From positions 1 through 47,089 of the IMG/VR virus record IMGVR_UViG_3300045996_001321: DNA of 47,089 nt. The stretch is one strand, 5' to 3'. The stretch is from a virus. The position numbers were made by a program, and so were the translations under genes. The notes beneath the pieces were generated by a model, which had not been told where the DNA came from, searched no databases, and saw nothing but the letters and a program-made list of their open reading frames with translations. Positions 11,273-43,397 of this stretch are shown here, piece by piece. Within the stretch, counting starts at the first letter, position 1; each line of letters starts with the position of its first letter.

Positions 11273-11683
11273 TCAGGCGGCCTCCCCTTGCTGCGCACGA
11301 GCAGCCCAGTGCGTCAGAAATTGGATGAAGCGGTCGAAGTCGCACTCCTTCCACTCGCCGACGTGGCCACCCTTGATCACTTTCAGGCCAAAGATTTCGG
11401 AGGTTCGATAATCGCAGCGAACGACAAGAACCTTGATCCGCTCGGAGAGGGCCGTCAGCGCCTGGAAAGCGCGCTGTTGTCCTCCCGTCGCGTCGGCGCC
11501 GTTCATCTTAAACTCCACCACCAAAAAGTTTCCGCCGAGCTCCACGAAGCCATCGAGGTCGGTGAAGTTTATTCCTCGGGGGAAGCACTGGGCGAGGTGC
11601 TCAATGTCGAAATGGCGGTGGTAATTGAAGCATCCGCTGATGATGCAATTCCACTCCAAGGGGTTGAAGCCGGGAGGGTTCAT
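11273..11683 (-). CDS. PD-(D/E)XK-like phage protein
   Basis: 136 residues. The stretch INFTDLDGFVELGGNFLVVEFK has the shape of a PD-(D/E)XK core: Asp after a turn, a beta strand, then E-x-K. YRTSEIFGLKVIKGG follows. It is likely a small nuclease or an inactive relative. It is the next gene after the ParB-Dam fusion, with an ATGA overlap, so it may act with it on phage or host DNA. No restriction specificity can be read from sequence. Confidence 0.7.
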   Translation of the reverse strand: MNPPGFNPLEWNCIISGCFNYHRHFDIEHLAQCFPRGINFTDLDGFVELGGNFLVVEFKMNGADATGGQQRAFQALTALSERIKVLVVRCDYRTSEIFGLKVIKGGHVGEWKECDFDRFIQFLTHWAARAQQGEAA

Positions 11684-16301: not shown

Positions 16302-16757
16302 ATGACCTTGGAAACCTCTACCCGATCGCCGCTGGCACATCAGCCCGTCTTCCCCGTCGCGACCTACACGGACGAATACGGCGACACTCGCATCATCCAC
16401 GCTGAGCGTGGCAAAGGGGGTAAGCTTCGGCGCCTGAAAGGCATGGATACGCCTGCGGGGCTGCTCAACCGAGCTATCGCGATTCTTCTGGGCCGGCGAG
16501 TTCGCGAGCGCCGCCTCCATCTGGGCCTCACTATGCCGGAAGTGGCGAAGCGGGCGGGGCTCGCCAGCGCCAGCCCAAAGCAATACATCTACCATATCGA
16601 AACGGCCCATCGCCGCGAAGGGGTGCGACTCGGGACGCTGTTCGCCCTTGCCCACGCGCTGGAGTGCGAGCCCGCCGACCTGTTGCCGAGCGCAGCCGAG
16701 GCGATGAATCTGGCAAGTGTGAAGCCCGCCACTTCCGACACGCTGGCGGTCCTGTGA
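16302..16757 (+). CDS. XRE-family HTH regulator
   Basis: 151 residues with AGGAGA before the ATG. Residues 60-130 are an XRE helix-turn-helix: GRRVRERRLHLGLTMPEVAK, RAGLASASPKQYIYHIE, RLGTLFALAHALECEPADLL. The N-terminal 50 residues are of unknown fold. It may act as a second regulator of accessory or recombination genes. Confidence 0.8.
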   Translation: MTLETSTRSPLAHQPVFPVATYTDEYGDTRIIHAERGKGGKLRRLKGMDTPAGLLNRAIAILLGRRVRERRLHLGLTMPEVAKRAGLASASPKQYIYHIETAHRREGVRLGTLFALAHALECEPADLLPSAAEAMNLASVKPATSDTLAVL

Positions 16758-17554: not shown

Positions 17555-18774
17555 GACACAATCCCGGCAACCCTCCCGAGCTGCGGCGGCCGATGATGGT
17601 CGCCGAAGCCGAGCGGTTGCGCGAACAAGGACTCGATGTGGAAAGCGTCAGCGAAATTCTCGAAGGCCGGCGCGGGCAGCCGGGTGAACCAACCCGCGTC
17701 GATCCTCCCCGGCTCCCGGACACCCCCATGTTCCCGGAGCCGGGGATCTACTTCAACATGCCTGAGGCGGAATACCATGCAATCCCGGCGCTGTCGAATA
17801 GCGGGATCAAGTGCCTCGCCTCGTCGCCAATGCTGTTCTGGGCCAAGTCCTGGCTGAACCCGAACAAGGAAGAGATCGACCGCGAGCACCATATCCTCGG
17901 CCGCGCCTACCACTGTCGGTTGATGGAGGGCGCGAGTGCCTTTGCGCTGCGTTTCGCCGTCCTGCCCGACAAGTCCGAGTTCAAGGACTTGCTCGTCACT
18001 GACGAGGATATCCGACAGGCGATCAAGGACGCTGGCGGCTGGCCGGTAAGCGGCAACAAGAACAAGCGCGTCGAGCAGCTTCTAGACCTCGACCCGTCGG
18101 CGAACGTCTGGGACATCATCGTCGGCGAGCACGCCATCGAGAACGGCGGCAAGGCCTTCATAACCGCCGAGCAATGGAAGCGGCTCGAAATCGCCGCCTA
18201 CATGATCGACCGTGACCCGGAGCTGTCCAAAGCGTTTTCAGGCGGCCATCCGGAAGTGTCGCTGTTCTGGCACTGCCCGACCACCGGCGTTCCGATGAAG
18301 GCGCGGGTAGATTACCTCAAGCACCGGGCGATGATCGACCTGAAGAGCTTCGGCAACCAGCGCGAGCGGAGCATTGAGCGGGCCATCGCTTATGAGATCG
18401 CGGGCTACCACTACAACATCCAGCCCAGCGTCTATTTCGAAGGCGCGGCCGAAGTCCGCAAGATCGTCCAGCGGCACGGGGCATCGGCTGTGCACGGGCT
18501 CGAGGACCCGTCTTGGGCGCTCGAATGGGGCCAGCACTTGAAGCCCGACGAGTGGCTCTGGGTATTCCAGCAAAAGGGGCCGGCGCCCGTTACTCGCGGA
18601 GTTTGGTATCCGAGGGCCGGCACGACCAAAATGGTCACGGATGAAATCGTGGCCGTCCAGAAGCGCAAGTTTGCCCGCTGTGTCGAGAAGTTCGGCGCCG
18701 AGCCGTGGCTGGACATCGAGCCGATCTACAAGCTCGCCGATGAAGACATCCCCCCATTCGCAACGGAGATTTGA
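17551..18774 (+). CDS. RecE/exodeoxyribonuclease VIII-like exonuclease
   Basis: 407 residues from GTG (GTGA overlap). The nuclease part starts near residue 70 (YFNMPEAEYHAIPALSNSGI) and shows the PD-(D/E)XK core: GRAYHCRLMEG (His/Glu of motif I), VPMKARVDYLKH (Asp) and AMIDLKSFG (D-x-K). A later GYHYNIQPSVYFEGA segment gives the Q-x-x-x-Y motif. It would digest one strand from double-strand ends to produce single strands for the RecT protein encoded next. The pair forms a phage homologous-recombination system. Confidence 0.9.
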   Translation: MRHNPGNPPELRRPMMVAEAERLREQGLDVESVSEILEGRRGQPGEPTRVDPPRLPDTPMFPEPGIYFNMPEAEYHAIPALSNSGIKCLASSPMLFWAKSWLNPNKEEIDREHHILGRAYHCRLMEGASAFALRFAVLPDKSEFKDLLVTDEDIRQAIKDAGGWPVSGNKNKRVEQLLDLDPSANVWDIIVGEHAIENGGKAFITAEQWKRLEIAAYMIDRDPELSKAFSGGHPEVSLFWHCPTTGVPMKARVDYLKHRAMIDLKSFGNQRERSIERAIAYEIAGYHYNIQPSVYFEGAAEVRKIVQRHGASAVHGLEDPSWALEWGQHLKPDEWLWVFQQKGPAPVTRGVWYPRAGTTKMVTDEIVAVQKRKFARCVEKFGAEPWLDIEPIYKLADEDIPPFATEI

Positions 18775-18776
18775 GC

Positions 18777-19577
18777 ATGGCCACGCAAGCCGAAGATGTA
18801 GCCGACGCCCCGAAGCTGCCCGCCAAAGTGCCTGTGCAGTTAGAGGCTCAGGACGGCGTAAGGGCCATTCTGCCGACGAACCTGGACGAGGCTCAGCGCT
18901 ACGCTGCGGGGATCATCCGGGCAGGCATCGTCCCCGAACCCTACAAGCACAAGCAGGACGTGGTGGAGGGCGAGCAGCTCATCCACCGGCGAGGCGATCC
19001 GAACGCGCCCTTGATTCTGATGGGCGTCTTGAAGGCGATGGAGATCGGAGCTCCGCCGCAGACAGGCCTCGCCGGCCTCTTGCCGATCAACGACCGCTGG
19101 GCAGTATGGGGAGACTTGGCCGTTGGCCTGGCGCAGTCGAAGGGGCTGGTAGCCAACCAGCAAAAGCGCTTTGTAGGCCCGTCCTTCGATCCTTCCACCC
19201 CGCTGGGAGAGTGGCCGGACGAATACGGTGTCGTTTACTCCATCTGGAGGCGCGGCCAGCCTGACCCGTATGTCGGCGAGTTCACCGTTCGCGATGCTCG
19301 GCGGGCCAACCTGTGGCTGAACACGCGCAAGCAGCCGTGGATTCAATACCCCAACCGGATGCTGTTCAACCGCGCCCGCGCTTTCGCGCTCCGCGACGGT
19401 TTCGCCGACACCCTTCAGGGCCTGGCCATAGCCGAAGAGGCGCTCGACTTCGCGCCTGAGCCGCACGCCGACGGCGGCATTCTCACCGTCGACAACTCAG
19501 CCCTTAATGACGGGCCGGTGACCGATGCTCAGAACAACACGGCTGAAGAGCTGCAGGGAGAGGCCGCGCCGCAATGA
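18777..19577 (+). CDS. RecT-family single-strand annealing protein
   Basis: 266 residues. ATG 18777 has GGAG upstream, while TTG at 18771 is also in frame. RecT proteins anneal complementary single strands. Visible marks are HRRGDPNAPLILMGVLKAME, TGLAGLLPINDRWAVWGDLA and KQPWIQYPNRMLFNRARAFA LRD, with the last two close to the RecT consensus (split across residues 185-210). The C-terminal tail is acidic and likely disordered. It is encoded directly after the RecE-like exonuclease. Confidence 0.9.
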   Translation: MATQAEDVADAPKLPAKVPVQLEAQDGVRAILPTNLDEAQRYAAGIIRAGIVPEPYKHKQDVVEGEQLIHRRGDPNAPLILMGVLKAMEIGAPPQTGLAGLLPINDRWAVWGDLAVGLAQSKGLVANQQKRFVGPSFDPSTPLGEWPDEYGVVYSIWRRGQPDPYVGEFTVRDARRANLWLNTRKQPWIQYPNRMLFNRARAFALRDGFADTLQGLAIAEEALDFAPEPHADGGILTVDNSALNDGPVTDAQNNTAEELQGEAAPQ

Positions 19578-19665
19578 GGGGCGCATCCAGCACAAGCGGA
19601 CGCGGCCAAGGGCCGGAGCCCCACCTACGGCGGCTGAGAAGCGCCACAGGGCACGCGTGGCGGCC

Positions 19666-23622: not shown

Positions 23623-23866
23623 AGAATACCCCTACCCGCCCCGGATGATGACCCGCGCCAGGGCAGCGCACTATTGCGACCTGCCCGAAGCCGAGTTCGA
23701 GCGCGAGGTCGCCGCAGGCACCTTGCCGCCGCCGATCCTGCTGGGTCGAAAGCCGCACTGGAGCCGCAAGGATCTGGACGAGCGGCTTGACATGCTGGCC
23801 GGCGGCGATGCTCCTGACTGGAGAGCGAATTCCAACTTCTACAGCAGGAAGAAGCGTGTCGCGTAA
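23615..23866 (+). CDS. Putative excisionase/AlpA-like HTH protein
   Basis: 83 residues. YPPRMMTRARAAHYCDLPEA then EFEREVAAGTLPPPILLGRK and PHWSRKDLDERLDML is the winged helix pattern of phage excisionases and AlpA regulators. It lies just upstream of the integrase and overlaps it by 11 nt, the usual pairing for direction control of integration. Confidence 0.8.
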   Translation: MAREYPYPPRMMTRARAAHYCDLPEAEFEREVAAGTLPPPILLGRKPHWSRKDLDERLDMLAGGDAPDWRANSNFYSRKKRVA

Positions 23867-24911
23867 GCAACATACCCTGGAGCACGTCAAGCAGGTGAAG
23901 CGAGGCAATGTGACCTATCTCTATTTCAATACCGGAGAGAAGGTGGACAAGAGGCCCGTTTACGTCGCGCTGGGCCGCAAGGGCTCGCTCGAGGTGGGCA
24001 CGCGCTACTCGGCGGCCCTGGCAGCACGCACACGCCGGGCTGGGCTTCCTTCGTCCCTGACGGTGCCGCAGCTCGTCCAGCGCTATGAGCGCAGCCCGGA
24101 GTTCACCCGCAAGAGCGTAGGGACGCAGCGAGCCTACAGCGTCTATCTCAACCGCTTGGCGAAAGAGTTCAACACGGCGCCGGCCGGCGCCTTCGCCGCG
24201 AGCGACATCTATGCGCTGCTGGACGAGATGGGGAACCGCCCGGCCGCAGTGCAAATGCTCCTCCTGGCAGGCGGGCAGATGTTCGCTTGGGCGCTCAAAC
24301 GAAAATTCGTCATCCAGAATCCCTTCGACGGGATCGATCGCGAGGATTGGGAGGCGCGGCAATATGAGCCTTGGCCGGAGGCGGTCGTTGAGGAAGCGCT
24401 GGCGGACCCACGCTTGGAACTGGCCGTCGCCCTGCTCTACTTCACGGGCCAGCGCATCGGCGACTGTTGCAAGATGAAATGGGCCGACGTCGACGGCGAC
24501 GAGATCCACGTCGTCCAGCAAAAGACGGGGAAGGAGCTTTTCATCCCGGTTCACTCCCGGCTGGCGGATATCCTCGCCCGGGCGCCTCGGGATGGCGATA
24601 CGATCCTCGCCGACGTGCGAGGCTTCAAAGCGAAGGATCAGACGATCCGGGGGTGGATTGCCGCGTTCGGCGTGAAGAAGGGCATCAAGCTCGTCCCCCA
24701 CGGGCTCCGTAAAAATGCGGTCAACGCGCTTTTGGAGGCCGGATGCACGGCGGCACAGGTGTCCTCGATCACCGGACAGTCGCTCCAGATGATCGAGCAC
24801 TACGCCCGCAAACGCAACAACCGGCGGCTTGGCCGGGCCGCCATGGCTAAATGGGAACGGGCCGGAAACGGGGAAACGGCGGGGAAAACTTCGCAGGAAG
24901 GTGAGGAATAA
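23856..24911 (+). CDS. int: Tyrosine recombinase (phage integrase)
   Basis: 351 residues from GTG 23856 with AGGAAG upstream. The N-terminal arm-binding and core-binding domains span 1-165. The catalytic domain has Arg200 (TGQRIGDCCKMKW), a beta-hairpin Lys (QQKTGKELF), His282-x-x-Arg285 (PHGLRKNA) and the nucleophile Tyr316 (MIEHYARKR). The second His of the R-H-R-H-Y set is replaced by Gln (ITGQSL), which is tolerated in some family members. It inserts the phage into the host chromosome, so this is a temperate phage. Confidence 0.96.
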   Translation: MSRKQHTLEHVKQVKRGNVTYLYFNTGEKVDKRPVYVALGRKGSLEVGTRYSAALAARTRRAGLPSSLTVPQLVQRYERSPEFTRKSVGTQRAYSVYLNRLAKEFNTAPAGAFAASDIYALLDEMGNRPAAVQMLLLAGGQMFAWALKRKFVIQNPFDGIDREDWEARQYEPWPEAVVEEALADPRLELAVALLYFTGQRIGDCCKMKWADVDGDEIHVVQQKTGKELFIPVHSRLADILARAPRDGDTILADVRGFKAKDQTIRGWIAAFGVKKGIKLVPHGLRKNAVNALLEAGCTAAQVSSITGQSLQMIEHYARKRNNRRLGRAAMAKWERAGNGETAGKTSQEGEE

Positions 24912-28427: not shown

Positions 28428-28501
28428 TCCCCCGTCGTCTAGCGGTAGGACTACGGCCTTTGAAGCCGTCAACCGTGGTTCGAGTCCACGCGGGGGAACC
28501 A
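28428..28501 (+). tRNA. tRNA-Gln (anticodon TTG)
   Basis: Complete cloverleaf of 74 nt: acceptor TCCCCCG/CGGGGGA (7 bp), D-arm GTC...GAC with GGTAGG loop, anticodon arm ACGGC-CTTTGAA-GCCGT with TTG, T-arm CGTGG-TTCGAGT-CCACG, discriminator A and encoded CCA (28499-28501). It reads CAA codons, which are rare in high-G+C hosts, and lies on the strand opposite to its late-gene neighbours. Confidence 0.95.
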
Positions 28502-28737: not shown

Positions 28738-28900
28738 AGGAGTTTCCGCCCTTGACGGCCTCCTCGGCCATCAGAGTCAGTTCGGAAAACACGTCCTCCG
28801 CATTGCTCGCCACACCGGCTTGAGATCCCTGATGGATAACGTCGGCAAGAGACGGGGCTTCCTCGAGAAAGCGTTCGGCGAAAGCGCGAGGTGTGATCAT
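28730..28900 (-). CDS. Small hypothetical protein
   Basis: 56 residues, acidic and helical (RAFAERFLEEAPSLADVIHQ). It links two genes by an ATGA overlap at its start and an 8-nt overlap at its end. Function unknown. Confidence 0.6.
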   Translation of the reverse strand: MITPRAFAERFLEEAPSLADVIHQGSQAGVASNAEDVFSELTLMAEEAVKGGNSCD

Positions 28901-29262
28901 GGCCGTTCCTTCACATTTGCTGGGTCGCTGGGCTCGTTCGCCACCCGCACGTCGAGCGGTTCGCCGGCTTTTTCGCCCACCCGAAGCGCGTCCGTTACCG
29001 CCGTTGCCATCAGGCCGGTGTTGTCGGCTCGCTTGGCGTCCAGCGCGTCCTGCCCAACCTTGCTGACGAAGTAGAAGCCGAGCGCCAGCGTTGCCATGCC
29101 GCTGAGCTGTCCGACCATGTAGACGACAAGTTCCTTGTTCTCCGCCGGGATGACCTTGAACACGAACATCGGCAGCGTCGAGATGAAGGCCCCCACGAGC
29201 AGGAAGGCGAGCAGGTTCCGGACCCGCTCGATCTCGTCAATCGGGGTGCGGGGCTCGGTCAA
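28897..29262 (-). CDS. Holin-like membrane protein
   Basis: 121 residues. Two membrane segments, NLLAFLLVGAFISTLPMFVF (17-36) and MVGQLSGMATLALGFYFVSK (48-67), with a charged, mainly polar C-terminal tail. Size and layout fit class II holins, which make holes in the inner membrane at lysis. The neighbours on both sides also carry membrane or coiled-coil segments, so this is probably the lysis cassette. ATGA overlap upstream. Confidence 0.65.
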   Translation of the reverse strand: MTEPRTPIDEIERVRNLLAFLLVGAFISTLPMFVFKVIPAENKELVVYMVGQLSGMATLALGFYFVSKVGQDALDAKRADNTGLMATAVTDALRVGEKAGEPLDVRVANEPSDPANVKERP

Positions 29263-29903
29263 TTCGCGGCCCCTCCGAAGCTATTGTAGAGGGTGATCGC
29301 CGCGATGATCGCTCCAATGATTATGACGATCATGCTGGTATTGGAGCGGAGGTCGACGCGCCCGTCATTCTTGCCCTGACCCTCGGACATATTCCGGCTC
29401 AGCGCCTCGATCGTCGCGGCCATCCGGGCAAGCTGCGGATCGCGTTCGGCGCTCTTGCCGCTGCCCTCATAGCTGGCGCGTTCGAGCTGGGCGATGCGCT
29501 CGGCCAGCGGCGTGTAGATGGCGGCTGCGGCCTTTGCCGCAGCGTCGGCGGTCGTGGCTACCAGATCGCGTAGCGTCGACGCCGAGACCGACACTTGCAT
29601 CGCCAGCGCCGACGCGGCCGCCGCAGCCCTTTCTCTGTCCAGCGCGGCTGCTGCCACATCGACATCGCGGATCGCGTCGAGACGCTGGGATTCCTTCTCG
29701 TCAAGCTCGCGGGCGTGCGCGGCGCGAAGATCTCCTATTTCCTTCGCGTGGGCGTGCTTGGTATCGCTAAGCTTCTCGGCTGCCTCAAGCGCCTGATCCA
29801 CTCGGCGCCCTTCGGCCGCAACGAGATCGAGGACGTTCTTGGTCGGATCGACGGCCGGATTCCCCTGCGGATCGACCCCCTCCCCGGGTCGCGGCTCAGC
29901 CAC
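29259..29903 (-). CDS. Coiled-coil protein with C-terminal membrane anchor
   Basis: 214 residues. I chose GTG 29903 (GGAGGG upstream) over TTG 29921. Residues 20-110 are coiled coil (AEGRRVDQALEAAEKLSDTK, ARELDEKESQRLDAIRDVDV), and the last 25 hold a membrane segment (MIVIIIGAIIAAITLYNSF). Tail-anchored coiled-coil proteins of this type occur in phage lysis regions; it may be a spanin-like or holin-partner protein. Confidence 0.75.
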   Translation of the reverse strand: MAEPRPGEGVDPQGNPAVDPTKNVLDLVAAEGRRVDQALEAAEKLSDTKHAHAKEIGDLRAAHARELDEKESQRLDAIRDVDVAAAALDRERAAAAASALAMQVSVSASTLRDLVATTADAAAKAAAAIYTPLAERIAQLERASYEGSGKSAERDPQLARMAATIEALSRNMSEGQGKNDGRVDLRSNTSMIVIIIGAIIAAITLYNSFGGAAN

Positions 29904-30345
29904 TCCGCCCTCCCCTTGCAAGTCGGTCGTGCTGCTTCAACAGTGAGTCGAGAACTGGCGTGCGATGCTCCGGCGGAATGGCGCGCCCGACCTCAAGCTG
30001 ATATGCGATGAACTGGCGCTCGATCCCGTCGAGCTTCTTGCTCTGCTTTCGGTAGTTTTCATCTCTTTCGCGGCCGGCCTCGCGCATCCTTTGCAGCTCC
30101 CCTTCGCAGCGTTCATGCGCTTCCCGCTGCGCCGTTATGTCGCGCACAAGATTGTCGATCACGAACTGCAAGTTCGTCCGGCCATCCGCGCTGATCTCAA
30201 GCTGAAAGTCCTGGTCGCGGGCCTTTTCCGCGAGCTTCAGGCGCCGGTTGTCGACATAGAGCTTGACGGCGATGCCGAGAATGCCAGCGATAAAGCCGGT
30301 CGTCATCCATGGCCTGATCAACTCAAGCGCGTTTCCCCAATCCAT
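29896..30345 (-). CDS. Membrane-anchored coiled-coil protein (inner-spanin-like)
   Basis: 149 residues. An N-terminal membrane segment (WMTTGFIAGILGIAVKLYV, residues 13-31) is followed by a long charged coiled coil (DNLVRDITAQREAHERCEGE, REAGRERDENYRKQSKKLDG). This is the layout of an inner-membrane spanin (Rz). The start shares bases with the upstream stop (TAATG). Confidence 0.7.
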   Translation of the reverse strand: MDWGNALELIRPWMTTGFIAGILGIAVKLYVDNRRLKLAEKARDQDFQLEISADGRTNLQFVIDNLVRDITAQREAHERCEGELQRMREAGRERDENYRKQSKKLDGIERQFIAYQLEVGRAIPPEHRTPVLDSLLKQHDRLARGGRSG

Positions 30346-30824
30346 TATTTCGCCTCCCCTTCCCGAGCAGCATTCGGTTGAGGAGGACGCCGACGAAAAC
30401 GAAGCCTGAAACGGCCAGTACGATACCCATGAGCAATCCCCACGCCCAAGGTTAAGAAACACTCCACGGCGAAACAGATGTTCGTCCCCACGACGAAGAC
30501 GAATATCTGATATCGCGACGGGTCGGCGCCGGCCGCCGCGAAGTTCACGGTGATCCCGATGGAGGCGAGATTGACGGCCACCAAAGCAATCAGGAGGCGA
30601 TAGCCCGTCGCCCCCCAAGCACAGTAGGCGGCCAGCGCCACCAGGACCTCGATCAGCGTGTAAGGGCCTGAATGGGCGGTGATCGGCACGGTGAAATAGA
30701 GGATGTTGGTCACGACGTAGCCAGCCGCCAGCATCCAGCCGATCCAGCGCAGATCCTCATCCTTCCACGTCGCCCAGACGGCCAGCGCGGCAAGGGCGCC
30801 GTAGAAGACGAGAGCGAGCATCAT
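30345..30824 (-). CDS. Multi-pass membrane protein of lysis region
   Basis: 159 residues with four probable membrane segments (LALVFYGALAALAVWATW; MLAAGYVVTNILYFTVPI; YRLLIALVAVNLASIGITV; IFVFVVGTNICFAVECFLTL) and an Arg-rich C-terminus. Not a typical holin in size. It may be a holin/antiholin or an unrelated conversion protein. ATGA overlap upstream. Confidence 0.75.
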   Translation of the reverse strand: MMLALVFYGALAALAVWATWKDEDLRWIGWMLAAGYVVTNILYFTVPITAHSGPYTLIEVLVALAAYCAWGATGYRLLIALVAVNLASIGITVNFAAAGADPSRYQIFVFVVGTNICFAVECFLTLGVGIAHGYRTGRFRLRFRRRPPQPNAAREGEAK

Positions 30825-31015
30825 CCTTCGGGGTCCTTGGGCCGGCCGCCGCCGAAGGTCGTCACATCGTCATCAGACAGGCCTAGCAAGTCCTTGTGCC
30901 TCACCATCAGCTCGGCAAGCAGGTTGTGGAGATTGCGGACGTTGCGGCGCGACGGGTCCGCCTCGGCATTGTTGAGGGCGTCGCGAATGCTCTGGATGTC
31001 ACTTTGAACCGACAT
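30821..31015 (-). CDS. Small hypothetical protein after tailspike
   Basis: 64 residues. Start ATG 31015 has AAGGAG 7 nt upstream. Helical (DIQSIRDALNNAEADPSRRN, LHNLLAELMVRHKDLLGLSD). Unknown function; first gene of the lysis-like cassette. Confidence 0.7.
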   Translation of the reverse strand: MSVQSDIQSIRDALNNAEADPSRRNVRNLHNLLAELMVRHKDLLGLSDDDVTTFGGGRPKDPEG

Positions 31016-31026
31016 GTTCATTCTCC

Positions 31027-33099
31027 TTATGGATCAATCGCTCCGTAGAGATTCCATACGCCGGGCTCTCCAGCGGTCACACATACCCAGCCGATCTTGC
31101 CTCCGGCAACGGGCACAGTATTGTAAACGATTTCTCCGACAGCATGATAACCGCTAGTTGGCGCCGCTGCCGCACGACTGATTGACCTTGCGGCAGCACC
31201 GGTGCCGAGAAAGATTTCCGAAACCACAACCTTGCCCGCTTGAGCGGTAGACCTCCCCCCGGTGAAGGCCGTATTCGTCCCCGTGAAGGTGATAAATGCG
31301 CCGGATACCCCAAGCTCGAACTTCGTGTCGACGTCCTGGTTTCCGTAGAAGGCGTCCGGGTGCAGCGTCGGATGACTGAGGGTCAGCCACCCACCGGCGC
31401 CGAGATCGCCCCCGAACTTGGCCGTCAGGAACTCTCCGTTGTAGTAGCGCTTTTCGGCGAGGAAGCCGCCCGGATTCAGGATGGCGCCGTTTCGGCCCTT
31501 AATCTGGGCACTGGCGCTCCACTGGCTGACAGCGGCTTGCCCACCGATCGATAACTGCGGGCTTCGAACCTGGGCTGGGGGCTGTCCGTCCTCGCCGTAG
31601 CAAGCCTCCCAAACGCTGTCCGCGACGGCGCTGTTGCCGCCGTAGCTCCCGCCGTTCTTCCACGTCATTCCACTGACCCACAGCGGTATCCCGTCGATCG
31701 GGCCGGTACCGAAGTAGAAGGGCACCCACACCGCCTGATTAGTGCCGGGGGTTGTGGTTGATGCCGCGACTGTCTGCCCGATGGCGGTATGATACCAGCA
31801 ATATAGGGACGTTCCGGCATAGGCCCATTTATAGCCGTCGGCCTCCGTGACTCCATCCGTGTCCGTGTGGGTAGGCGCGTTGGCGGTGTTCCCGGCCCCG
31901 GCCTTCTGGAGGAGATAGAGCTTGCTCGCGTTCGTCCGGTACTGGCCGCCGGGGTTGACGACGGCATAGGCGGTCCCCGTCACCCAGGCGGGCCATGGAA
32001 CGGCGCAGGCGGCGCCAACCGCGCCCATCTTATGCCCCTCGTAAATAAACCCAAGCCCATTTCCCGCAGAATGATGGCCGATATGGCTGTTGCTGAGAAA
32101 GGCGTCGTCATAAATTCCAAATCCGCCGTTGGAGTACACGTCGCAACCGTAGGTGGAAATGACGTTGGCATCGCCGTTCAGGAGATGGATGCCGTTTCCA
32201 CCGTTGCCGCCGCACTGGCAGAAAAGGATGCGCGCGCTGTTCGCGTTGTTGGGATGAAGTCCGGACGAAGCACCGAAGCCGGTTATGCTCTCGATCCGGA
32301 TCCCGTCGCCGGGAAAGGCGTTGAAGGTGCAGCGGATAACGTCGCCGCGGATAACGGCATGGAGGCCATGATGTCCGGTCCCGGCCGCCGCCCGGCTGTT
32401 GCAGGCGATGTTCTCGAGCCGCCATCCCGAGGCGGTGGTCGTCGCCGCGCCGAGTATCCCATCGTGATCGGTCCAGGGGCCGTGAAACTCGAACCCGCCC
32501 AAGTCGAAGTCGAACGTGGTCGCATAACCGGCACGCTGGGAATTGGACTGCCCCTCGAGCCACAGCGCGCATTTGACAACCCATGGCTCGGCAAAGCGGA
32601 AATGGCCGGCCGGGGCGGTGACTCGGATCGCGGGATTGCCGCCAGAGGCAGGCGTCGGGTTGTTGGCGAGGAGAAAGGCGAGGAGTCCGTCTACGGCGTC
32701 GCTGTTGGACTCCGCCAGCGCATCATCGTCGCCGGCCACGATCCCGAAGTCGGTTATGTCGACCGTTTGGCCGGCGGTGCCCGTGCCGGTGTTGTACGGA
32801 TCGATATCGTCTATTGTGCTGCTGTCTTCGTCCTCCAGGACGGCGCGGTAGGTGACGGTCGGATCCAGGTAGATCGGCACGAACTTGCCGCTGCTGTTCG
32901 CCGTGACGACCGCGCCCAACTCCGTCTCGAGCTCGAAATCGGCGTAGACCGACTCCGGCGAAGAGGTTCCCGTGCGATAGAAATTCCACGTCGCCCCGCT
33001 AATCGGGTTGCCGTTGCTGTCGAGCGCGGGCGTGAGCGCGGGGATGAAAAGGCTCAATTGCGCCTCCATTGCGGGATTGGTAAGAAGGGTCGATGACAC
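31027..33099 (-). CDS. Tailspike protein (parallel beta-helix)
   Basis: 690 residues from GTG 33099, or about 680 from ATG 33069; neither has a good ribosome-binding site. Residues 12-100 form a head-binding-like start (SGATWNFYRTGTSSPESVYA, SGKFVPIYLDPTVTYRAVLE) known from many phage tailspikes. Residues 150-350 show the Gly/Asn/Asp-rich repeated strands of a right-handed beta-helix (GFEFHGPWTDHDGI, NAFPGDGIRIESITGFGASS). Such spikes bind and often cleave surface polysaccharide. It replaces a tail fibre in a short-tailed phage. The C-terminal 100 residues are a separate, probably trimerising domain. Confidence 0.85.
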   Translation of the reverse strand: MSSTLLTNPAMEAQLSLFIPALTPALDSNGNPISGATWNFYRTGTSSPESVYADFELETELGAVVTANSSGKFVPIYLDPTVTYRAVLEDEDSSTIDDIDPYNTGTGTAGQTVDITDFGIVAGDDDALAESNSDAVDGLLAFLLANNPTPASGGNPAIRVTAPAGHFRFAEPWVVKCALWLEGQSNSQRAGYATTFDFDLGGFEFHGPWTDHDGILGAATTTASGWRLENIACNSRAAAGTGHHGLHAVIRGDVIRCTFNAFPGDGIRIESITGFGASSGLHPNNANSARILFCQCGGNGGNGIHLLNGDANVISTYGCDVYSNGGFGIYDDAFLSNSHIGHHSAGNGLGFIYEGHKMGAVGAACAVPWPAWVTGTAYAVVNPGGQYRTNASKLYLLQKAGAGNTANAPTHTDTDGVTEADGYKWAYAGTSLYCWYHTAIGQTVAASTTTPGTNQAVWVPFYFGTGPIDGIPLWVSGMTWKNGGSYGGNSAVADSVWEACYGEDGQPPAQVRSPQLSIGGQAAVSQWSASAQIKGRNGAILNPGGFLAEKRYYNGEFLTAKFGGDLGAGGWLTLSHPTLHPDAFYGNQDVDTKFELGVSGAFITFTGTNTAFTGGRSTAQAGKVVVSEIFLGTGAAARSISRAAAAPTSGYHAVGEIVYNTVPVAGGKIGWVCVTAGEPGVWNLYGAIDP

Positions 33100-33263
33100 C
33101 GAAACAGCGGGCTTTGTTGGCGGGCGGAGTGGCCGGAGTGGCTGTCGCTGCCTTCCGGCTGCGTGGCGATGTGGCTTTCGATGTCGGCGTTTTGATCGGT
33201 GGTGCGCTGGGTGGGATGGCCCTGGCCTATTTGATATCGCTGGCCGTCGGCTGGCTTAGGTGA
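33093..33263 (+). CDS. Small two-segment membrane protein (plus strand, immI-like position)
   Basis: 56 residues. AAGAAGGG lies just before the ATG. Two membrane segments: ALLAGGVAGVAVAAF (7-21) and VGVLIGGALGGMALAYLISL (31-50). It is encoded on the strand opposite to the late genes, between the large ejection gene and the tailspike. That is where P22 keeps its oppositely transcribed immI/sieA region. Its stop overlaps the start of a second small membrane gene (GTGA). A role in superinfection exclusion or conversion is inferred from position and topology only; it is not similar in length to SieA. Confidence 0.65.
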   Translation: MTPKQRALLAGGVAGVAVAAFRLRGDVAFDVGVLIGGALGGMALAYLISLAVGWLR

Positions 33264-33376
33264 GGGAGTTCTTTTCCCCGCTGCGGCGCCCGATATTCTG
33301 GATTCTTCTGCCTGTGGGGTGGTATTTCCTGCCGAATCTATTCATCTTCCTTAGCGGCAGCCGAGGTGGTTGGTGA
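33260..33376 (+). CDS. Tiny membrane protein (plus strand, second of pair)
   Basis: 38 residues from GTG 33260, coupled to the gene before by GTGA. One hydrophobic segment, IFWILLPVGWYFLPNLFIFL (12-31), rich in aromatic residues, with basic N-terminus (REFFSPLRRP). Its last 39 nt overlap the end of the minus-strand ejection gene in antisense. Confidence 0.55.
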   Translation: MREFFSPLRRPIFWILLPVGWYFLPNLFIFLSGSRGGW

Positions 33377-35965
33377 GGCGCTGAATGCGCTTTCCAGCCG
33401 AGCCTGGAGCGCGGTGATCTGGTTTGCCAGCGCAGGGTTGCGCGCCGCTGCCACACTCAGCGATCGAACCGCCGACTGACCTTCGCTAGGCGTCTTAGCG
33501 CTTCCGATACGAGCCAGAGCCCTAGCCACAGACGGAGATGCCAAGAGGCTGCCCGCAGCGTATTGCGTCCCCAAGGCCGCCGCCAGAGGGACAATGCCAG
33601 CAAACGCCGACGTCACGGTAAGGCCGGTCATGCCGACGCTCCCCGTATTGGACCTGTTCGCATACCGCCCGGCGCGCTTCACCTCACTCGAAATGCGCGC
33701 CAGCTTATCGATCGCCTCGCGTCCCTCGCCGGTGAAAAGAGCGTTGCGCGCAGTACGCTCCATGTCGTTCCAGCGAGTGAGGAACCCATCGAAGGTGAAA
33801 GCCCCCCCGACGTCATCCTGAGCGCCGCTGGAAGCCTTACCCAGAGCGTTGATGAGGGTTGCCCGGACTGTGCCGGCCTCTTCCTCCGGAAGCGCCTGGA
33901 CAAAGCCGCGCAGCCGTTCACCATTGCCCTTTGCGGCAGCTTGAAGCGCTCTGAACACTTCCTCGCCGGACCTCTCACCCTTTTTGCCGACGATGGGCAT
34001 AAGGAAGTTGTCGAGCGCGTCCACCCGCGCCGCCCATGCTGCATCCGCTTGCCGGTAAATGTCTGCGGCCTCGCTTTTGCCCAAAGCCGTCAAGGAGTCG
34101 GCGATGTCGTCGCTGGCGCTCTGGACGATCTCGTTAACCCGCCGCTCGATGTCGGAACCGCGAAGGCCGTCCTTGAAGAACTTGTCCCTAAGCTGGGTTC
34201 GCATTCCGCGGATGCCCTGGACCGTTACTCCGTCCGGAAACCGAGTGGTCAATTCGTCCCGAAGGGCCTGCAAATATTTTGCGCCTTCCGTTCCGCCTGG
34301 AATGCTGTTCAGGTCGGCCAAATTGTCGTCTATAGTCGCAAGGGCTTTGACCGGAACTACGCGCGCGTCGGCAGCGACGTTGGCGGCGCGGTCATAAAGT
34401 CTGCTGATGTCAGTGCGACTGGCGGAGCGGTACTTGAGCGCGCCCCGCACCGCCGCTTGGCCTGCAGCTTCGGAATTGAGAATGGCCCCCTCCGCACCGG
34501 CTATCGTGCGCAGCGCTCGGGAACCCCCCTCGGTCATGCGTTCGACGGCTCGAGCTACGGGGTAGGCTCCGCCTGGCGTCTGGGCTGCCGCTGCCGTAGC
34601 GAGGCGCGTTGTCGGGCCTCCGGTGACAACCGGCATGATGTCGATCTTCAAAGCGGCTGCGTCATCGGCCACTTGGCGCCGGGATGTCCGTGGCGGGGGC
34701 GTTGGACGCGGAGCAATCGGCACTTTCCCGACGGCGCGCTCCGCCAATCCAGCAAGGGCGCTTTGGGGGGCGCCTAGGACCCCTCCCGTGAATTGTGAGG
34801 CTATACGCGCTGCCTTTCCGGCGCCGTCTTGAGGAGTCGGAGCGATTTTCTCGATCACTCCGCCGATGGTGCCAGGATTGCGCCACTGCTCGGCGGCCCA
34901 CCGGGCGTTTTCTTCCACACCGGTTGCCCCCAGAGCGCTGGCAACGCCCGCCACTCCTTCGGCTCCCAGCGAGAGTGTCCCGCTCAAGGCATTCGTGAAC
35001 GCGTCCGGGATGGCGGCCATGCCCTGGCCTATCCCCGCGACCGTGTTAATCGAGGCGTCGCCTAATTGGCTCAGCAGACTCGGTGTGCCTGAGGCGCTCG
35101 GGGCGTCCCCAACGACTTTCGCGTCCTTGCGGCCGATCGCCTGCCGAAGCTCGACAGGATCAAAGGTCAGGTTCAACTCCTGGCCGTAGCGAGCCACGTC
35201 TTCGTAGGACGCTCCGCTGCGGATTTTCTCTTGAAACAAACGGTTGCGCTGCTCGAACGGCAGCGATGGGAGGCTGACTTCCTTCGCCCCAGGGCCAGAG
35301 CCCATTTTTAGCCCTTCGATGGTCTCCGCGCGCAGGCGCTTCTTGGCCTCAAGGGTGGCAGGGTCATCGCCCGACTGCGGGAAATAGGTCCGATATGCGG
35401 ATGCAAACTCTTCCGGCGGGATAGCGGCGCCAGACTCATAGCGCAGGGCGGCGGTGATAAATCCGCGCGCGTTGGCATCTGCCGCCTGCCTCTCGGCAGA
35501 GGTAATGTAGCTTTCATAGTCGTCCGGAACGATGGCCCGGCCGATAGTCAGAGAAAGCGGGGGCGCGCCGACGCCGGTTTGCTCATAGGCTTGATTCGCC
35601 TTTGCGGCGCGGCTGTAGAAGCCTGTCGCCTTGCTCTGCTCTACCCCGAGGGCGCCGGTCGGGTCGGCCGCCTTCCTCTCCAACGCCTGAAGCTCAAGCT
35701 CGGCCTTCCGGGCGTCTGCCTCGGCCTTCCTGGCGTCTGCCGGCGCATTCCCCAAAGCAGCACGGTCGCGAGCAAGGCCCACCTCGTCGCGCTCCGCTAC
35801 GATAGGCCGAACAGGAGCGGGGGCAGGCTGACGGGGCGCTACAACCTGCCGAAGAGGCGGAGGCGCGGCGGCTTCAGGAGTGTCAACGACAATCTGCCCG
35901 CCGACAATCCGCCCCATTTCTCCATTCGGACCGCGAACGCGCTTGCCCTCAAGCTCCTGAAGCAT
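33338..35965 (-). CDS. Large internal/ejection protein (gp16-like position)
   Basis: 875 residues. ATG 35965 shares a base with the stop of the transglycosylase gene (TGATG). The N-terminal 120 residues are low-complexity and coiled coil (DARKAEADARKAELELQALE); the middle has Gly/Ala-rich amphipathic stretches (INTVAGIGQGMAAIPDAFTN, LGAEGVAGVASALGATGVEE) suited to membrane entry; the rest is helical. The order transglycosylase, large Ala-rich protein, tailspike matches the ejection-protein block of P22-like phages, whose proteins leave the virion with the DNA and form a channel into the cell. Assignment by position and composition. Confidence 0.8.
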   Translation of the reverse strand: MLQELEGKRVRGPNGEMGRIVGGQIVVDTPEAAAPPPLRQVVAPRQPAPAPVRPIVAERDEVGLARDRAALGNAPADARKAEADARKAELELQALERKAADPTGALGVEQSKATGFYSRAAKANQAYEQTGVGAPPLSLTIGRAIVPDDYESYITSAERQAADANARGFITAALRYESGAAIPPEEFASAYRTYFPQSGDDPATLEAKKRLRAETIEGLKMGSGPGAKEVSLPSLPFEQRNRLFQEKIRSGASYEDVARYGQELNLTFDPVELRQAIGRKDAKVVGDAPSASGTPSLLSQLGDASINTVAGIGQGMAAIPDAFTNALSGTLSLGAEGVAGVASALGATGVEENARWAAEQWRNPGTIGGVIEKIAPTPQDGAGKAARIASQFTGGVLGAPQSALAGLAERAVGKVPIAPRPTPPPRTSRRQVADDAAALKIDIMPVVTGGPTTRLATAAAAQTPGGAYPVARAVERMTEGGSRALRTIAGAEGAILNSEAAGQAAVRGALKYRSASRTDISRLYDRAANVAADARVVPVKALATIDDNLADLNSIPGGTEGAKYLQALRDELTTRFPDGVTVQGIRGMRTQLRDKFFKDGLRGSDIERRVNEIVQSASDDIADSLTALGKSEAADIYRQADAAWAARVDALDNFLMPIVGKKGERSGEEVFRALQAAAKGNGERLRGFVQALPEEEAGTVRATLINALGKASSGAQDDVGGAFTFDGFLTRWNDMERTARNALFTGEGREAIDKLARISSEVKRAGRYANRSNTGSVGMTGLTVTSAFAGIVPLAAALGTQYAAGSLLASPSVARALARIGSAKTPSEGQSAVRSLSVAAARNPALANQITALQARLESAFSASPTTSAAAKEDE

Positions 35966-36369
35966 CAGCGTCCTCTCATTCTGGCTAGAACCTGATCGGC
36001 ATAGCGACGGGTTTTTGGCCCCCACAGTTGCTGATCCGGCCCGCCATGGTAGTACATCAGCGCCTTGCGTGGGTCGCCACCGTGGCGCTCAAGACCTTCC
36101 CGCAGATAAGCTTCGCCGATCGCTCGCTGGTAGCTGGCAGCGGCTTCGTCCGTTCCGCGCATCAGGTCGGGCCGCCACGGCAGGCCCAGCTTTTGCGCCA
36201 TCTCCTTGCCTGTCCCGTCTTGAACCTGCATCAGCCCGAAGGCCTGCCCGTAGGGCGTCTGCGGCCCGGCAACCCCTGCCCTGCCGCCGCTCTCCTGCTG
36301 AAGCACGGCGGCCGACAGATCAGGGAAAGGTGCCCGAGCCGGCCGGGCTCGGACCTCCTTCTTCATCAT
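35965..36369 (-). CDS. Lytic transglycosylase (SLT domain)
   Basis: 134 residues. The SLT fold is visible: AAVLQQESGGR with the catalytic Glu26, YGQAFGLMQVQDGTGKEMA, AIGEAYLREGLERHGGDPRK and ALMYYHGGPDQQL. It cuts peptidoglycan between MurNAc and GlcNAc. In the ejection block it probably opens the cell wall during DNA entry. No other endolysin was found, so it may also serve at lysis. ATG 36369 overlaps the previous gene by 50 nt. Confidence 0.9.
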   Translation of the reverse strand: MMKKEVRARPARAPFPDLSAAVLQQESGGRAGVAGPQTPYGQAFGLMQVQDGTGKEMAQKLGLPWRPDLMRGTDEAAASYQRAIGEAYLREGLERHGGDPRKALMYYHGGPDQQLWGPKTRRYADQVLARMRGR

Positions 36370-38169: not shown

Positions 38170-38727
38170 TCACGGCTCAATGCCCCCATAGCCAGGCGGC
38201 CGGGCGTAGCCCCCGCTCTGCGTACCGACCGCCGGGATCTCCACCGCTCCCACATTGTGGACATCGCCAATCTGCGCCGCGTCCGCCTCGGCGGTGGAAT
38301 ATTGGTAGGTGACGGCGCCCCCTGCCCTCGTCGGGTCGGAATAGTAGATGTAGACGATGATCCCCGGCGCCGCGCCCGTTGCGATCGTGTCTCCGGTCAC
38401 CGCGACGACCGTCCCATCTCCATAATGCCTGTCGTGGTTCGCTATGGTGACGAGTCCGGTATTGTCGGCGCTCACGACGGGGGGCGTGAAATTCTCCACG
38501 AAGCTGGTCGAAAGCGCGCTTCCTGACGTAATCTCTTCGGCAGCGGTGTTCGCGGCTTCAGCGGCGTCATTGGCCGCGTCGGCGGCGGCTTGGGCGTTCT
38601 GTATCGCCTCAATCGCTTCGTCCTGCCGCGCCTCGTTCGCCTCAATCGCCTCGGCTATCTGCTGCCACCAGAACTGGAACTCGTCTGGCGTGTATTTCGG
38701 CGGAAGTCGGGGAAGCTGAAGGCTCAC
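38170..38727 (-). CDS. Tail-region protein with N-terminal coiled coil
   Basis: 185 residues. N-terminus YTPDEFQFWWQQIAEAIEAN then an Ala/Glu coiled coil (NAQAAADAANDAAEAANTAA), then a beta-rich C-terminal half. Such proteins follow gp10-like genes in alphaproteobacterial podoviruses; it may plug the tail or connect to the needle. ATGA overlap upstream. Confidence 0.75.
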   Translation of the reverse strand: MSLQLPRLPPKYTPDEFQFWWQQIAEAIEANEARQDEAIEAIQNAQAAADAANDAAEAANTAAEEITSGSALSTSFVENFTPPVVSADNTGLVTIANHDRHYGDGTVVAVTGDTIATGAAPGIIVYIYYSDPTRAGGAVTYQYSTAEADAAQIGDVHNVGAVEIPAVGTQSGGYARPPGYGGIEP

Positions 38728-40097
38728 CTTGCCCTCCCCCCGCCCGGCTCGTTGACCTTCACGCTGCTGACCCTCAACGGAACCGGATCAGAGCATCGGA
38801 ACCCGAAAACCGCTACAGGAGCATCGAACATGCCCAAGGCGCGATAGCGGGTGCGGGTGCGATATTCTCCCTGCCGTCCCAGAGAAGCTGAACGATAATG
38901 CCCCCAGGTCGCGCCGCTGTCCCTCGATGAGCGCATTTCCAGCACCGGGTCGGAGCCTTGCCCAGCCAGCTCGTCAGTCCAGCCGCTGTTCGACTCAACC
39001 TCGAGATTGTCGACGTGGATGGCGCCCTTGACCGGGAAGGCGCCCGTGAACTCCCGTACAAGGGGTTCAGTCCCGTCCAGAAAGCCGCCGAGCCCCCAAA
39101 GCTGCCCCGTGCTATCGTCGCCCAGGATGACCGTTCGCCGCTGCGTCGCGGCGCAACTGGCGCGGAAATTGTCCTGCCCGTAGGTGGCAAGCTCGCACCA
39201 TTGCTTGGTGGCCGCGTCGAAGGCCCAGGTGCCTTGATCCAGACGCAGGCAGAAGAAGTTATGCCCCTCGTAAACGAACCCCCAGCAGGAGACCGAATTT
39301 GACCCCTCTATCCGCTCCTCGATGCCGTGATCCGAAATCCGCTCGGGAACCTCGGCGATGCGGTAGACGATCCCGTCGTGGCCGACGAAGGTAAGGCTGT
39401 TGTCCTGTTCCACCGCGCAACCGGTTGCGATCACCCCCTTTCGGTAGAGCCGCTGCTGGATGCGGCTGAAGGGTATCTCGGCGGCACCGGTGGCCGCCCA
39501 GACTTCGATGCTGGCCTGCCCCATCAGATAGAGGCTGTCCCCGACCGCCTTGACGTCTCTCAGTTCGTCGGGCGCGTTCTCGGCCGAAGCAAAGTCGAGC
39601 ACATCCCAGGAGCGGCTGTCGCGGACGGCTGACCAGAAGAAGCGATGCGAGCCCGCTTCAAGGGCAATGAACAGGCCAGCGAGATAAGCAACCGCAGTCA
39701 CCTCGTTGCTGAACAGGCCGGTGAAGCCGGAATTTACCAGATCCGTTCCGTCATAGCTGTAGGACGTCGATCCGCGAGCGATCAGCAATTCGTCCGCCGA
39801 CGCTGCCCAGGACACCGGCCCTGATCCAGTTAACGCCCCGATCTGATCTCCCTCGCGATAGAGCGTGTTTCCGAGGATCGCGAACAGGTCGCCGCCGAAC
39901 GATCCATCCTGGCAGAACAACCCTACTACCGGCCCGGCGCCCCAATTCGCGACTTCCTGAAGGCCCGGCCGCGAGAGGAGCGTTACCCCCGCCTCAGCCG
40001 AGGGTGTTTGCTCCACGAACAGATTGACCAGCTTGAACTCGGGCAGGTTGCCGTTGTCGCGCTTGTAGGCCCCGACACCATAGCGGATTGCTGGCAT
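38724..40097 (-). CDS. gp10-like packaged-DNA stabilisation protein
   Basis: 457 residues (P22 gp10 has 472). AAAGGGG lies before the ATG. N-terminus GNLPEFKLVNLFVEQTPSAE, then repeated blades of beta strands (GALTGSGPVSWAASADELLI, VGDSLYLMGQASIEVWAATG, FVYEGHNFFCLRLDQGTWAF) consistent with a beta-propeller-like tail hub. It closes the portal after packaging and carries the spike or needle. Confidence 0.85.
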   Translation of the reverse strand: MPAIRYGVGAYKRDNGNLPEFKLVNLFVEQTPSAEAGVTLLSRPGLQEVANWGAGPVVGLFCQDGSFGGDLFAILGNTLYREGDQIGALTGSGPVSWAASADELLIARGSTSYSYDGTDLVNSGFTGLFSNEVTAVAYLAGLFIALEAGSHRFFWSAVRDSRSWDVLDFASAENAPDELRDVKAVGDSLYLMGQASIEVWAATGAAEIPFSRIQQRLYRKGVIATGCAVEQDNSLTFVGHDGIVYRIAEVPERISDHGIEERIEGSNSVSCWGFVYEGHNFFCLRLDQGTWAFDAATKQWCELATYGQDNFRASCAATQRRTVILGDDSTGQLWGLGGFLDGTEPLVREFTGAFPVKGAIHVDNLEVESNSGWTDELAGQGSDPVLEMRSSRDSGATWGHYRSASLGRQGEYRTRTRYRALGMFDAPVAVFGFRCSDPVPLRVSSVKVNEPGGGRAR

Positions 40098-42494: not shown

Positions 42495-43397
42495 TTAGGC
42501 GCCGGCGTTGCCGTAGAGCGCCCTCGGATCGCCCCAGCCGCAGCTATAGCGCTCCGTCGACTTGTGCTTATTGTTCTCGGTGTCGAATTCGTTGTCCTGC
42601 TCCAAGGCAACGGCGCGACGCTGATAGGAGATGAGCCCATTGGGCACGTTGGTCTGGATGAACCAGGCGTCGGGATCGTCCAGGTAATGATTGACCACGA
42701 CCTCCGGGACCAGCCCGAGGGTCTTGATCGCGTTGACGTCGTTGTCGGCCGAGTCGACGCGCCCGCTGCTCTCCAGAATGCGGGTGGCGTTGAAGATCTG
42801 GCCGGGGCCGACGATCAGCCGGACGGCGCGGACAGCGATGGGCAGGCCCGCGCTGTTCTTTGCCGTCATGACCGTCGTCAGGGCGTCCTCGAGCGAAGCT
42901 TCCGAGAGGTCCGCCGAGGTCAGCAGGTTGCTCTGCGTTCCGTTGGCGGTCGGATGGCTCGCGGAGATGAGCGGCTGCCCGTTCCCTCCGAGATACGAGG
43001 TGTTGAAGGCCCGGTTGAGGACGTTGGCGTGAACGATTTCCTTGGTCGTCCACATCGACCAGGGCAGGGCCGCCGCGTTGGCTTCCGCGACCTCCTGATA
43101 CTGGTTGTCCTCCTTCGCCTCACGCGTCATGATATAGCCGAGGCCATAGGTGACGTGGGTGAAGACGTTGGTCGGACCCTGGCCGGGGGCGTCGTAGATG
43201 ATCGAGGAGCCTTCCGGCTTCACCGCGGCGAGGCCGAGGCCGGTAGCTTCCGCCACCTTCTCGTAAGCCTTGGTGGACCGGCGGACATCGAAAATCCGCG
43301 TATATTCCTTCGGCAGCTTCTCGTAGGTCGTGCCGAAGATGGCCTGAATCCCGGGCCAGAGAAGGTCGGGATGGGTCGAGCGGGTGATAAGTGCCAT
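42495..43397 (-). CDS. Major capsid (coat) protein
   Basis: 300 residues; strong AGGAGGG before the ATG. HPDLLWPGIQAIFGTTYEKL, then YIMTREAKEDNQYQEVAEAN and LGGNGQPLISASHPTANGTQ follow the Mu gpT-like branch of HK97-fold major capsid proteins. The scaffold-like gene lies a little upstream, and a strong RBS and following hairpin suit the most abundant protein of the phage. It is a likely client of the encoded GroES. Confidence 0.88.
   Translation of the reverse strand: MALITRSTHPDLLWPGIQAIFGTTYEKLPKEYTRIFDVRRSTKAYEKVAEATGLGLAAVKPEGSSIIYDAPGQGPTNVFTHVTYGLGYIMTREAKEDNQYQEVAEANAAALPWSMWTTKEIVHANVLNRAFNTSYLGGNGQPLISASHPTANGTQSNLLTSADLSEASLEDALTTVMTAKNSAGLPIAVRAVRLIVGPGQIFNATRILESSGRVDSADNDVNAIKTLGLVPEVVVNHYLDDPDAWFIQTNVPNGLISYQRRAVALEQDNEFDTENNKHKSTERYSCGWGDPRALYGNAGA

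What the first reader, a model, noticed from the sequence alone, without database searches (positions are those of the whole stretch)
33093..33376. Hidden pair of tiny antisense membrane-protein genes where P22 has immI/sieA
On the plus strand, against the late genes, a 56-residue protein with two membrane segments has a good ribosome-binding site and overlaps (GTGA) a 38-residue protein with one aromatic membrane segment. They lie between the large ejection gene and the tailspike. In P22 the superinfection-exclusion gene sieA and the immI region lie between gene 16 and gene 9. This suggests an unrelated, very small exclusion or conversion module at the same locus.
Basis: partly seen in the sequence, partly recalled or inferred. 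Interest (0 to 1): 0.68.

Follow-up and report, generated by a model that had tools for sequence, protein, structure and literature searches.

The report
Tiny antisense membrane genes beside tailspike
Between the DNA-ejection gene and the tailspike gene of this virus of bacteria lie two very small, genuine membrane-protein genes that run against their neighbours, in a genome slot where many distantly related short-tailed phages also keep such a gene and where phage P22 keeps one that blocks rival phages, so the pair probably shuts out competing phages.

Summary
ORFs 33093-33263 (56 aa) and 33260-33376 (38 aa, GTGA overlap) lie on the + strand against the late genes. The one close relative with this region (G001, 67% ejection-protein identity) keeps both ORFs, the overlap and the place, with protein-level purifying selection (dN/dS about 0.12). 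The slot generalises: in 14 of 15 podovirus genomes with an ejection-to-next-late-gene gap of 80 nt or more, the gap holds an antisense ORF with a predicted membrane segment; other late gaps give 2 of 35. P22 holds sieA there. In 11 of these 15 the ORF's start codon sits 6-7 nt after an extended -10 element (TGnTA), against 0.7% of background ORF starts, which predicts leaderless mRNAs from a promoter of their own. One held-out phage (P26218) met the prediction. Best reading: a leaderless, SieA-position exclusion module whose inner-membrane proteins interfere with the ejection conduit of related phages. Genes and architecture are well supported; the promoter is a sequence inference; exclusion rests on position and analogy. 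The ribosome-binding site is not conserved, 'lysogen-only' is doubtful (most relatives show no integrase), and no sequence relation to SieA was found.

The parts
33058..33337 (.). Gap between the tailspike start (TTG 33057, -) and the ejection-gene stop (33338, -): the slot that corresponds to the P22 gene 16 to gene 9 interval
   Evidence: ORF calls and conserved GGAGG-TTG start; P22 order
33058..33086 (+). Predicted promoter: TTGCGC, 17-nt spacer, extended -10 TGGTAAGAA ending 6 nt before the ATG; G001 has TTGCGC-N17-TGGTAAGAT at the same place
   Evidence: sequence only, no transcription data
33093..33263 (+). Gene A: 56-aa membrane protein, predicted helical hairpin, predicted leaderless start
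   Evidence: conserved as 52 aa in G001
33260..33376 (+). Gene B: 38-aa single-span, aromatic-rich membrane protein starting in the GTGA overlap (translational coupling inferred); overlaps the last 39 nt of the ejection gene
   Evidence: conserved as 38 aa in G001; resembles a 34-aa antisense ORF of phage Pan3
33338..35965 (-). Last (largest) ejection-type gene, convergent with the pair; presumed target class of the exclusion
   Evidence: position; C-terminal homology to annotated ejection/injection proteins of Pan3 and RHph_Y1_10
31027..33057 (-). Tailspike gene, starts at TTG 33057 after a conserved GGAGG
   Evidence: homolog in G001

Best explanation
The pair is a compact superinfection-exclusion module in the SieA position of a P22-like podovirus. 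Shown by sequence: two real protein-coding genes, antisense to the late operon, between the last ejection gene and the tailspike, with purifying selection and a conserved GTGA overlap. Inferred strongly: transcription starts at or next to the ATG from an extended -10 promoter, giving a leaderless mRNA expressed independently of the late operon (in the prophage, early in infection, or both) and opposed by convergent late transcription. Gene B is probably translated by coupling to gene A. Inferred more weakly, by analogy with SieA: the two proteins sit in the inner membrane and interfere with assembly or function of the DNA conduit that an incoming related phage builds from its ejection proteins. 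Physical linkage to the ejection gene would keep shield and target matched, and would explain why the slot is filled by unrelated, fast-replaced proteins in different phages.
For: Conserved pair, dN/dS about 0.12, correct frame only. The pair stays with the structural cassette in G001 while the early region is replaced. Antisense TM ORFs in 11 of 14 ejection gaps against 2 of 35 other late gaps, Fisher P 8e-7. With the TM required to lie wholly inside gaps of 140 nt or more, 8 of 9 against 1 of 17, P 5e-5. A motif-only scan of the gaps (TGnTA, N4, 5-8 nt, start) returns the TM ORF in ten of them. Held-out P26218 also fits. P22 sieA has the same position and orientation and its own promoter. 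[quoted passage not shown] The slot is a moron site inside the P22 late operon (PMC2629481, PMC8022706).
Against: No expression or phenotype data. No sequence or family link to SieA or any exclusion protein. Most IMG/VR relatives with such ORFs lack a detectable integrase, so a prophage-expressed role cannot be general. The -10 match of the window itself is weak (TAAGAA) and alone is not significant against shuffles (P 0.2). SieA (164 aa) is about three times as long as the 56-mer.
Confidence: 0.55

Rival explanations
1. The pair and its analogues are phage membrane genes with another host-directed function (host conversion, membrane protection, receptor or secretion effects), not exclusion.
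For: Position and promoter logic only show independent expression; moron genes have many functions; no exclusion homology; the P22 moron also holds non-exclusion genes.
Against: The recurring property is a small membrane protein next to the ejection gene, which is what a shield against conduit formation would need; SieA itself sits there.
Confidence: 0.25
2. The proteins assist the phage's own infection: early-made membrane factors that help the ejection conduit or DNA entry, or take over the membrane.
For: Present in apparently non-temperate relatives and linked to ejection genes; G001 shares mainly the structural cassette plus the pair.
Against: A helper of the first DNA entry would have to be present before its own gene enters; sequence turnover between phages is high while the ejection genes stay recognisable.
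Confidence: 0.08
3. A lysis function (pinholin/antiholin-like pair).
For: Two tiny overlapping membrane genes, Gly-rich hairpin; no certain holin was recognised elsewhere in the window.
Against: Transcribed against the late operon; other membrane genes lie in late orientation after the tailspike (28897-29262 and 30345-30824).
Confidence: 0.06
4. Not protein genes: hydrophobic antisense ORFs that arise because a frame antisense to a hydrophilic C-terminus, with matching codon boundaries, is hydrophobic, or a regulatory RNA.
For: The small ORFs of L034-L036 and Pan3 partly overlap the ejection gene's 3' end in a codon-aligned antisense frame; those TM calls weaken when only gap sequence is counted.
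Against: In the window and G001 the membrane segments lie in the gap; the codon signature is that of the + frame; the gap RNA does not fold better than shuffles; the leaderless motif fits the starts.
Confidence: 0.06

Closest known systems
P22 SieA and the gene 16 to gene 9 'ant moron' / immI region
   Same: Same place between last ejection gene and tailspike; antisense to the late genes; own promoter; small inner-membrane protein beside the ejection gene (PMC10883804; PMC2629481).
   Different: No detectable homology; 56+38 aa instead of 164 aa; predicted leaderless promoter, whereas the annotated sieA promoter lies some 30 nt upstream of its start; no mnt/arc/ant; relatives often lack an integrase.
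Antisense gp54 (89 aa, two TM) of Phage CBW1004C-Prop1
   Same: Antisense, starts 6 nt after TGGTAAAGT, ends 4 nt from the ejection-gene stop, before the tail fibre gene.
   Different: No sequence similarity; the neighbouring second antisense gene (gp55) is annotated as an exported protein; function unknown.
Unannotated antisense ORF of Pseudanabaena phage Pan3 (34 aa) and of IMG/VR relatives L034-L036 (30-32 aa)
   Same: Same slot, same frame relation to the ejection gene, aromatic single span; Pan3 aligns with gene B (shuffle P about 0.001) and with L036 (P about 0.002 or less).
   Different: No gene A; the shared similarity is short and partly confounded by overlap with the ejection C-terminus; hhalign does not confirm gene B against L034-L036.
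Antisense pair of L037 (34 aa + 31 aa, ATGA overlap)
   Same: Two tiny TM proteins with overlapping stop-start, right after the ejection gene; TGATATACG ends 6 nt before the first ATG.
   Different: No recognisable sequence similarity to A or B.

Membership tests
SieA superinfection-exclusion proteins (P22 type) | Sequence homology to SieA (PHROG 7745) including the FxRYPxEAxxFNK motif | tested here: not met
   No PHROG/NCBIfam hit for A or B; hhalign against P22 SieA 0.2 and 0.7% probability; motif absent
SieA superinfection-exclusion proteins (P22 type) | Gene lies between the gene 16 and gene 9 homologues, antisense to the late operon | tested here: met
SieA superinfection-exclusion proteins (P22 type) | Inner-membrane location | tested here: inconclusive
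   Predicted TM helices only
SieA superinfection-exclusion proteins (P22 type) | Blocks DNA entry of related phages | not testable with these tools
   needs plating and DNA-entry assays
Moron (independently expressed insertion in a phage operon) | Absent between the same two genes in some relatives | tested here: met
   VSN-002, DSL-LC05, L038 and L039 have 6-34 nt gaps there with no such gene
Moron (independently expressed insertion in a phage operon) | Own promoter | tested here: inconclusive
   Extended -10 like element at a fixed distance from the start, strong across the set; no transcript data
Moron (independently expressed insertion in a phage operon) | Own terminator | tested here: inconclusive
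   Only one weak terminator-like site in the region, at the level of shuffles
Holin/pinholin | Expressed with the late genes next to an endolysin | tested here: not met
   Antisense to the late genes; flanked by ejection and tailspike genes

The most novel reading that the evidence does not exclude
Podoviruses of the P22 type across Alpha-, Beta- and Gammaproteobacteria, and phages from cyanobacterial sources, share a previously unnoticed 'shield slot': directly behind the last ejection gene lies a leaderless antisense gene for a tiny inner-membrane protein, swapped between unrelated families, which protects the infected or lysogenic cell against phages with the same ejection proteins. It exists in virulent as well as temperate members, and SieA is only the enterobacterial, longer example.
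Probability: 0.4. Interest if true: 0.8.

Novelty: new variant of a known kind. Interest (0 to 1): 0.62.

Why it matters
It turns one curious ORF pair into a rule that predicts where to look. In short-tailed phages of the P22 type, the gap between the last ejection gene and the tailspike predicts a small antisense membrane gene, usually with the start codon 6-7 nt behind an extended -10 element. Most of these genes are too short for annotation pipelines (Pan3, Pam1, PBR31, P26218 and the TM gene of phiAX1 have none annotated there). If they exclude related phages, SieA would be one case of a widespread strategy, and a set of 30-90 residue blockers of DNA entry would become testable.

Tried and rejected
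Homology searches for A and B in Pfam, PHROGs, NCBIfam, PADLOC, INPHARED phages, PLSDB plasmids and IMG/VR gave only G001. Two GTDB genome scans with the ejection and Hc3 proteins found no relative. Foldseek of the hairpin model: nothing with E below 2. RNA-structure explanation: not supported. The long + strand shadow ORF 31867-33096, which ends in ATGA at gene A's start in both phages: rejected as a gene, because its part outside the tailspike has 5 nonsynonymous and 2 synonymous codon changes. The minus-strand 66-aa ORF over gene B: open in both phages but fits the changes worse than the + frame. Frameshift fusion of A and B: gene B is in the -1 frame but no canonical slippery heptamer was seen at the overlap (read). 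Sigma-70 scan with full hexamers: no site. Gene A against the first ORF of L037: no similarity. PAE2 has a 248-nt gap without such an ORF; Pam5 and PBR31 lack the -10 motif.

Full report
WHAT IS THERE. The window is a 47,089-base IMG/VR virus record of a podovirus with P22-type tail genes: terminase 3469-4989 (-), portal 433-2469 (-), head protein 42495-43397 (-), Hc3 38724-40097 (-), a transglycosylase-domain protein 35965-36369 (-), a large ejection-type protein 33338-35965 (-) and a tailspike. It carries an integrase (23856-24911 +) and an HTH repressor-like gene (16302-16757 +), so it is probably temperate. The two ORFs of the finding are present exactly as described. The tailspike most likely starts at TTG 33057, behind a GGAGG that is conserved in the relative, so the pair occupies a 280-nt gap and overlaps the last 39 nt of the ejection gene.

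ARE THEY GENES? One close relative was found, IMGVR_UViG_3300018429_000009 (G001). It shares terminase, portal and the block from the coat region to the tailspike, while its early region is almost wholly different. In the same gap, on the same strand, it has a 52-aa and a 38-aa ORF with the same GTGA overlap, 77% and 82% identical to A and B. Differences fall on codon positions 16/8/39 of the + frame. dN is 0.126 and dS 1.01; all other frames have stops in at least one phage, except the minus frame that shares wobble positions over gene B, which fits worse. Amino-acid differences are fewer than in neutral simulations (P 5e-5 for A, 8e-4 for B, 0.0035 for the part of B outside the ejection gene). 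The tailspike's first 60 codons gave the same kind of pattern as a positive control. Both indels in A are 6 nt. The RNA of the gap folds no better than shuffles. AlphaFold2 with two-row alignments gives a helical hairpin for A and one helix for B at moderate confidence; this supports helices, not a function.

THE SLOT IN OTHER PHAGES. P22 itself has sieA, orf59a and mnt antisense between genes 16 and 9. [quoted passage not shown]). I collected relatives by Hc3 and by the ejection C-terminus and read the interval. Antisense ORFs with a membrane segment are present in G001; L034, L035, L036 (30-32 aa); L037 (a 34-aa plus 31-aa pair with ATGA overlap); L040 (39 aa); Pan3 (34 aa); Pam1 (52 aa); Pam5 (45 aa, annotated gp14); CBW1004C-Prop1 (89 aa, annotated gp54); phiAX1 (90 aa, behind a 173-aa antisense gene and next to Arc-type repressor and KilA-N genes, an immI-like region); PBR31 (116 aa); P26218 (53 aa). 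PAE2 has a gap without one. Phages with gaps of 6-34 nt have none (VSN-002, DSL-LC05, L038, L039).

STATISTICS AND THEIR LIMITS. With a uniform rule, 11 of 14 ejection gaps against 2 of 35 other late gaps of the same kinds of phages contain an antisense ORF of 28 aa or more with a hydropathy peak of 1.5 or more (Fisher P 8e-7). If the membrane segment must lie wholly in the gap and gaps are at least 140 nt, it is 8 of 9 against 1 of 17 (P 5e-5). The stricter test matters, because a codon-aligned antisense frame of a hydrophilic C-terminus is hydrophobic anyway, and the small ORFs of L034-L036 and Pan3 overlap the ejection gene in that frame. Dinucleotide shuffles of 18 intervals give 2.9 expected, 13 observed, 0 on the sense strand (this set includes P22, chosen because of sieA, and one interval whose limits were set after looking). 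The figure of 14 of 15 in the summary is the looser tally: the 14 gaps plus held-out P26218, counting Pam1 and PBR31, whose ORFs were missed by the ORF-boundary rule but found. Lineages are not independent (G000/G001; L034/L035), and control gaps are shorter on average.

PROMOTER. In G000 and G001 a TTGCGC-N17-TGGTAAGA(A/T) element ends 6 nt before the ATG. The same distance is seen in L034, L035, L036 (7), L037, L040, Pan3, Pam1 and CBW1004C gp54, against 22 of 3,133 background ORF starts (0.7%). The start codons were fixed before the motif was noticed; those of L035 and L036 were set by homology with L034. A scan of the gaps for the motif alone, without a membrane criterion, gave exactly these ORFs in ten gaps; in phiAX1 and P22 it gave other ORFs. 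As a held-out test four further phages were fetched. Only P26218 has a gap of 80 nt or more, and it contains TGTTAAAAA, 7 nt, then the ATG of a 53-aa ORF with a strong membrane segment. That ORF is similar to the PBR31 ORF (alignment score above all 2,000 shuffles). Pam5, PBR31 and PAE2 lack the motif. The reading is a leaderless transcript from an extended -10 promoter. It is a sequence inference. For the window alone the element is not significant; the weight comes from the set.

WHAT IT DOES. [quoted passage not shown] Linkage of shield and ejection gene, and replacement of the shield by unrelated families, fit such a role. What is shown: genes, selection, slot recurrence. What is inferred: promoter and leaderless start (strong), coupling of B to A (moderate), exclusion (moderate to weak). 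Against a purely lysogenic role, no tyrosine integrase or serine recombinase was found in G001 or in the IMG/VR relatives L034-L037 and L039; records may be incomplete.

RELATION TO KNOWN FAMILIES. The pair sits in the place and orientation of SieA but is not a SieA by sequence. Gene B may belong to a broader family of single-span proteins with an aromatic-LP core: Pan3 aligns with B (shuffle P about 0.001) and with L036 (about 0.002 or less), but direct comparison of B with L034-L036 is not significant, and part of the similarity could come from overlap with the ejection gene. I do not claim this family as established.

Noticed in passing
window 31867-33096 (+) and L002 8870-9364 (-): A long antisense ORF over the tailspike (409 aa here, 164 aa in G001) ends in ATGA exactly at the start of gene A in both phages. 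Codon changes do not support it as a gene, but the shared stop at the start codon is curious.
   Followed up: partly
window 5202-5339 (-): A 45-aa one-span membrane protein upstream of the terminase gene, conserved in G001 (69% identity).
   Followed up: no
window 28428-28501 (+): A tRNA-Gln (TTG) gene on the strand opposite the late genes, between two late-strand genes.
   Followed up: no
window 28897-31015 (-) and L019 11768-13125: After the tailspike both phages have a similar order (a 3-TM protein, then coiled-coil/TM proteins) without tblastn similarity; perhaps an unrecognised lysis cassette. No endolysin was recognised there by the family searches that were run.
   Followed up: partly
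L023 18223-18495 (-) with 18492-19597: Acetobacter phage phiAX1 has an unannotated 90-aa TM ORF overlapping (ATGA) a 173-aa antisense gene, next to Arc-type repressors and a KilA-N gene: an immI-like region in an alphaproteobacterial phage.
   Followed up: partly
L014 9274-9397 (Pam1) and L012 7183-7294 (Pan3): A G+C-rich hairpin (in Pam1 followed by a T-rich run on the late strand) lies just upstream of the antisense -10 element, so late transcription may stop between the ejection gene and the tailspike.
   Followed up: no
window 11680-12771 (-): A protein with both ParB-like partition and DNA methyltransferase matches.
   Followed up: no
L042 4789-5478 (-): Pseudoalteromonas virus H6/1 has four small antisense genes between the portal and scaffold genes; a TGnTA-type element precedes a 34-aa TM ORF there (5421).
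   Followed up: no
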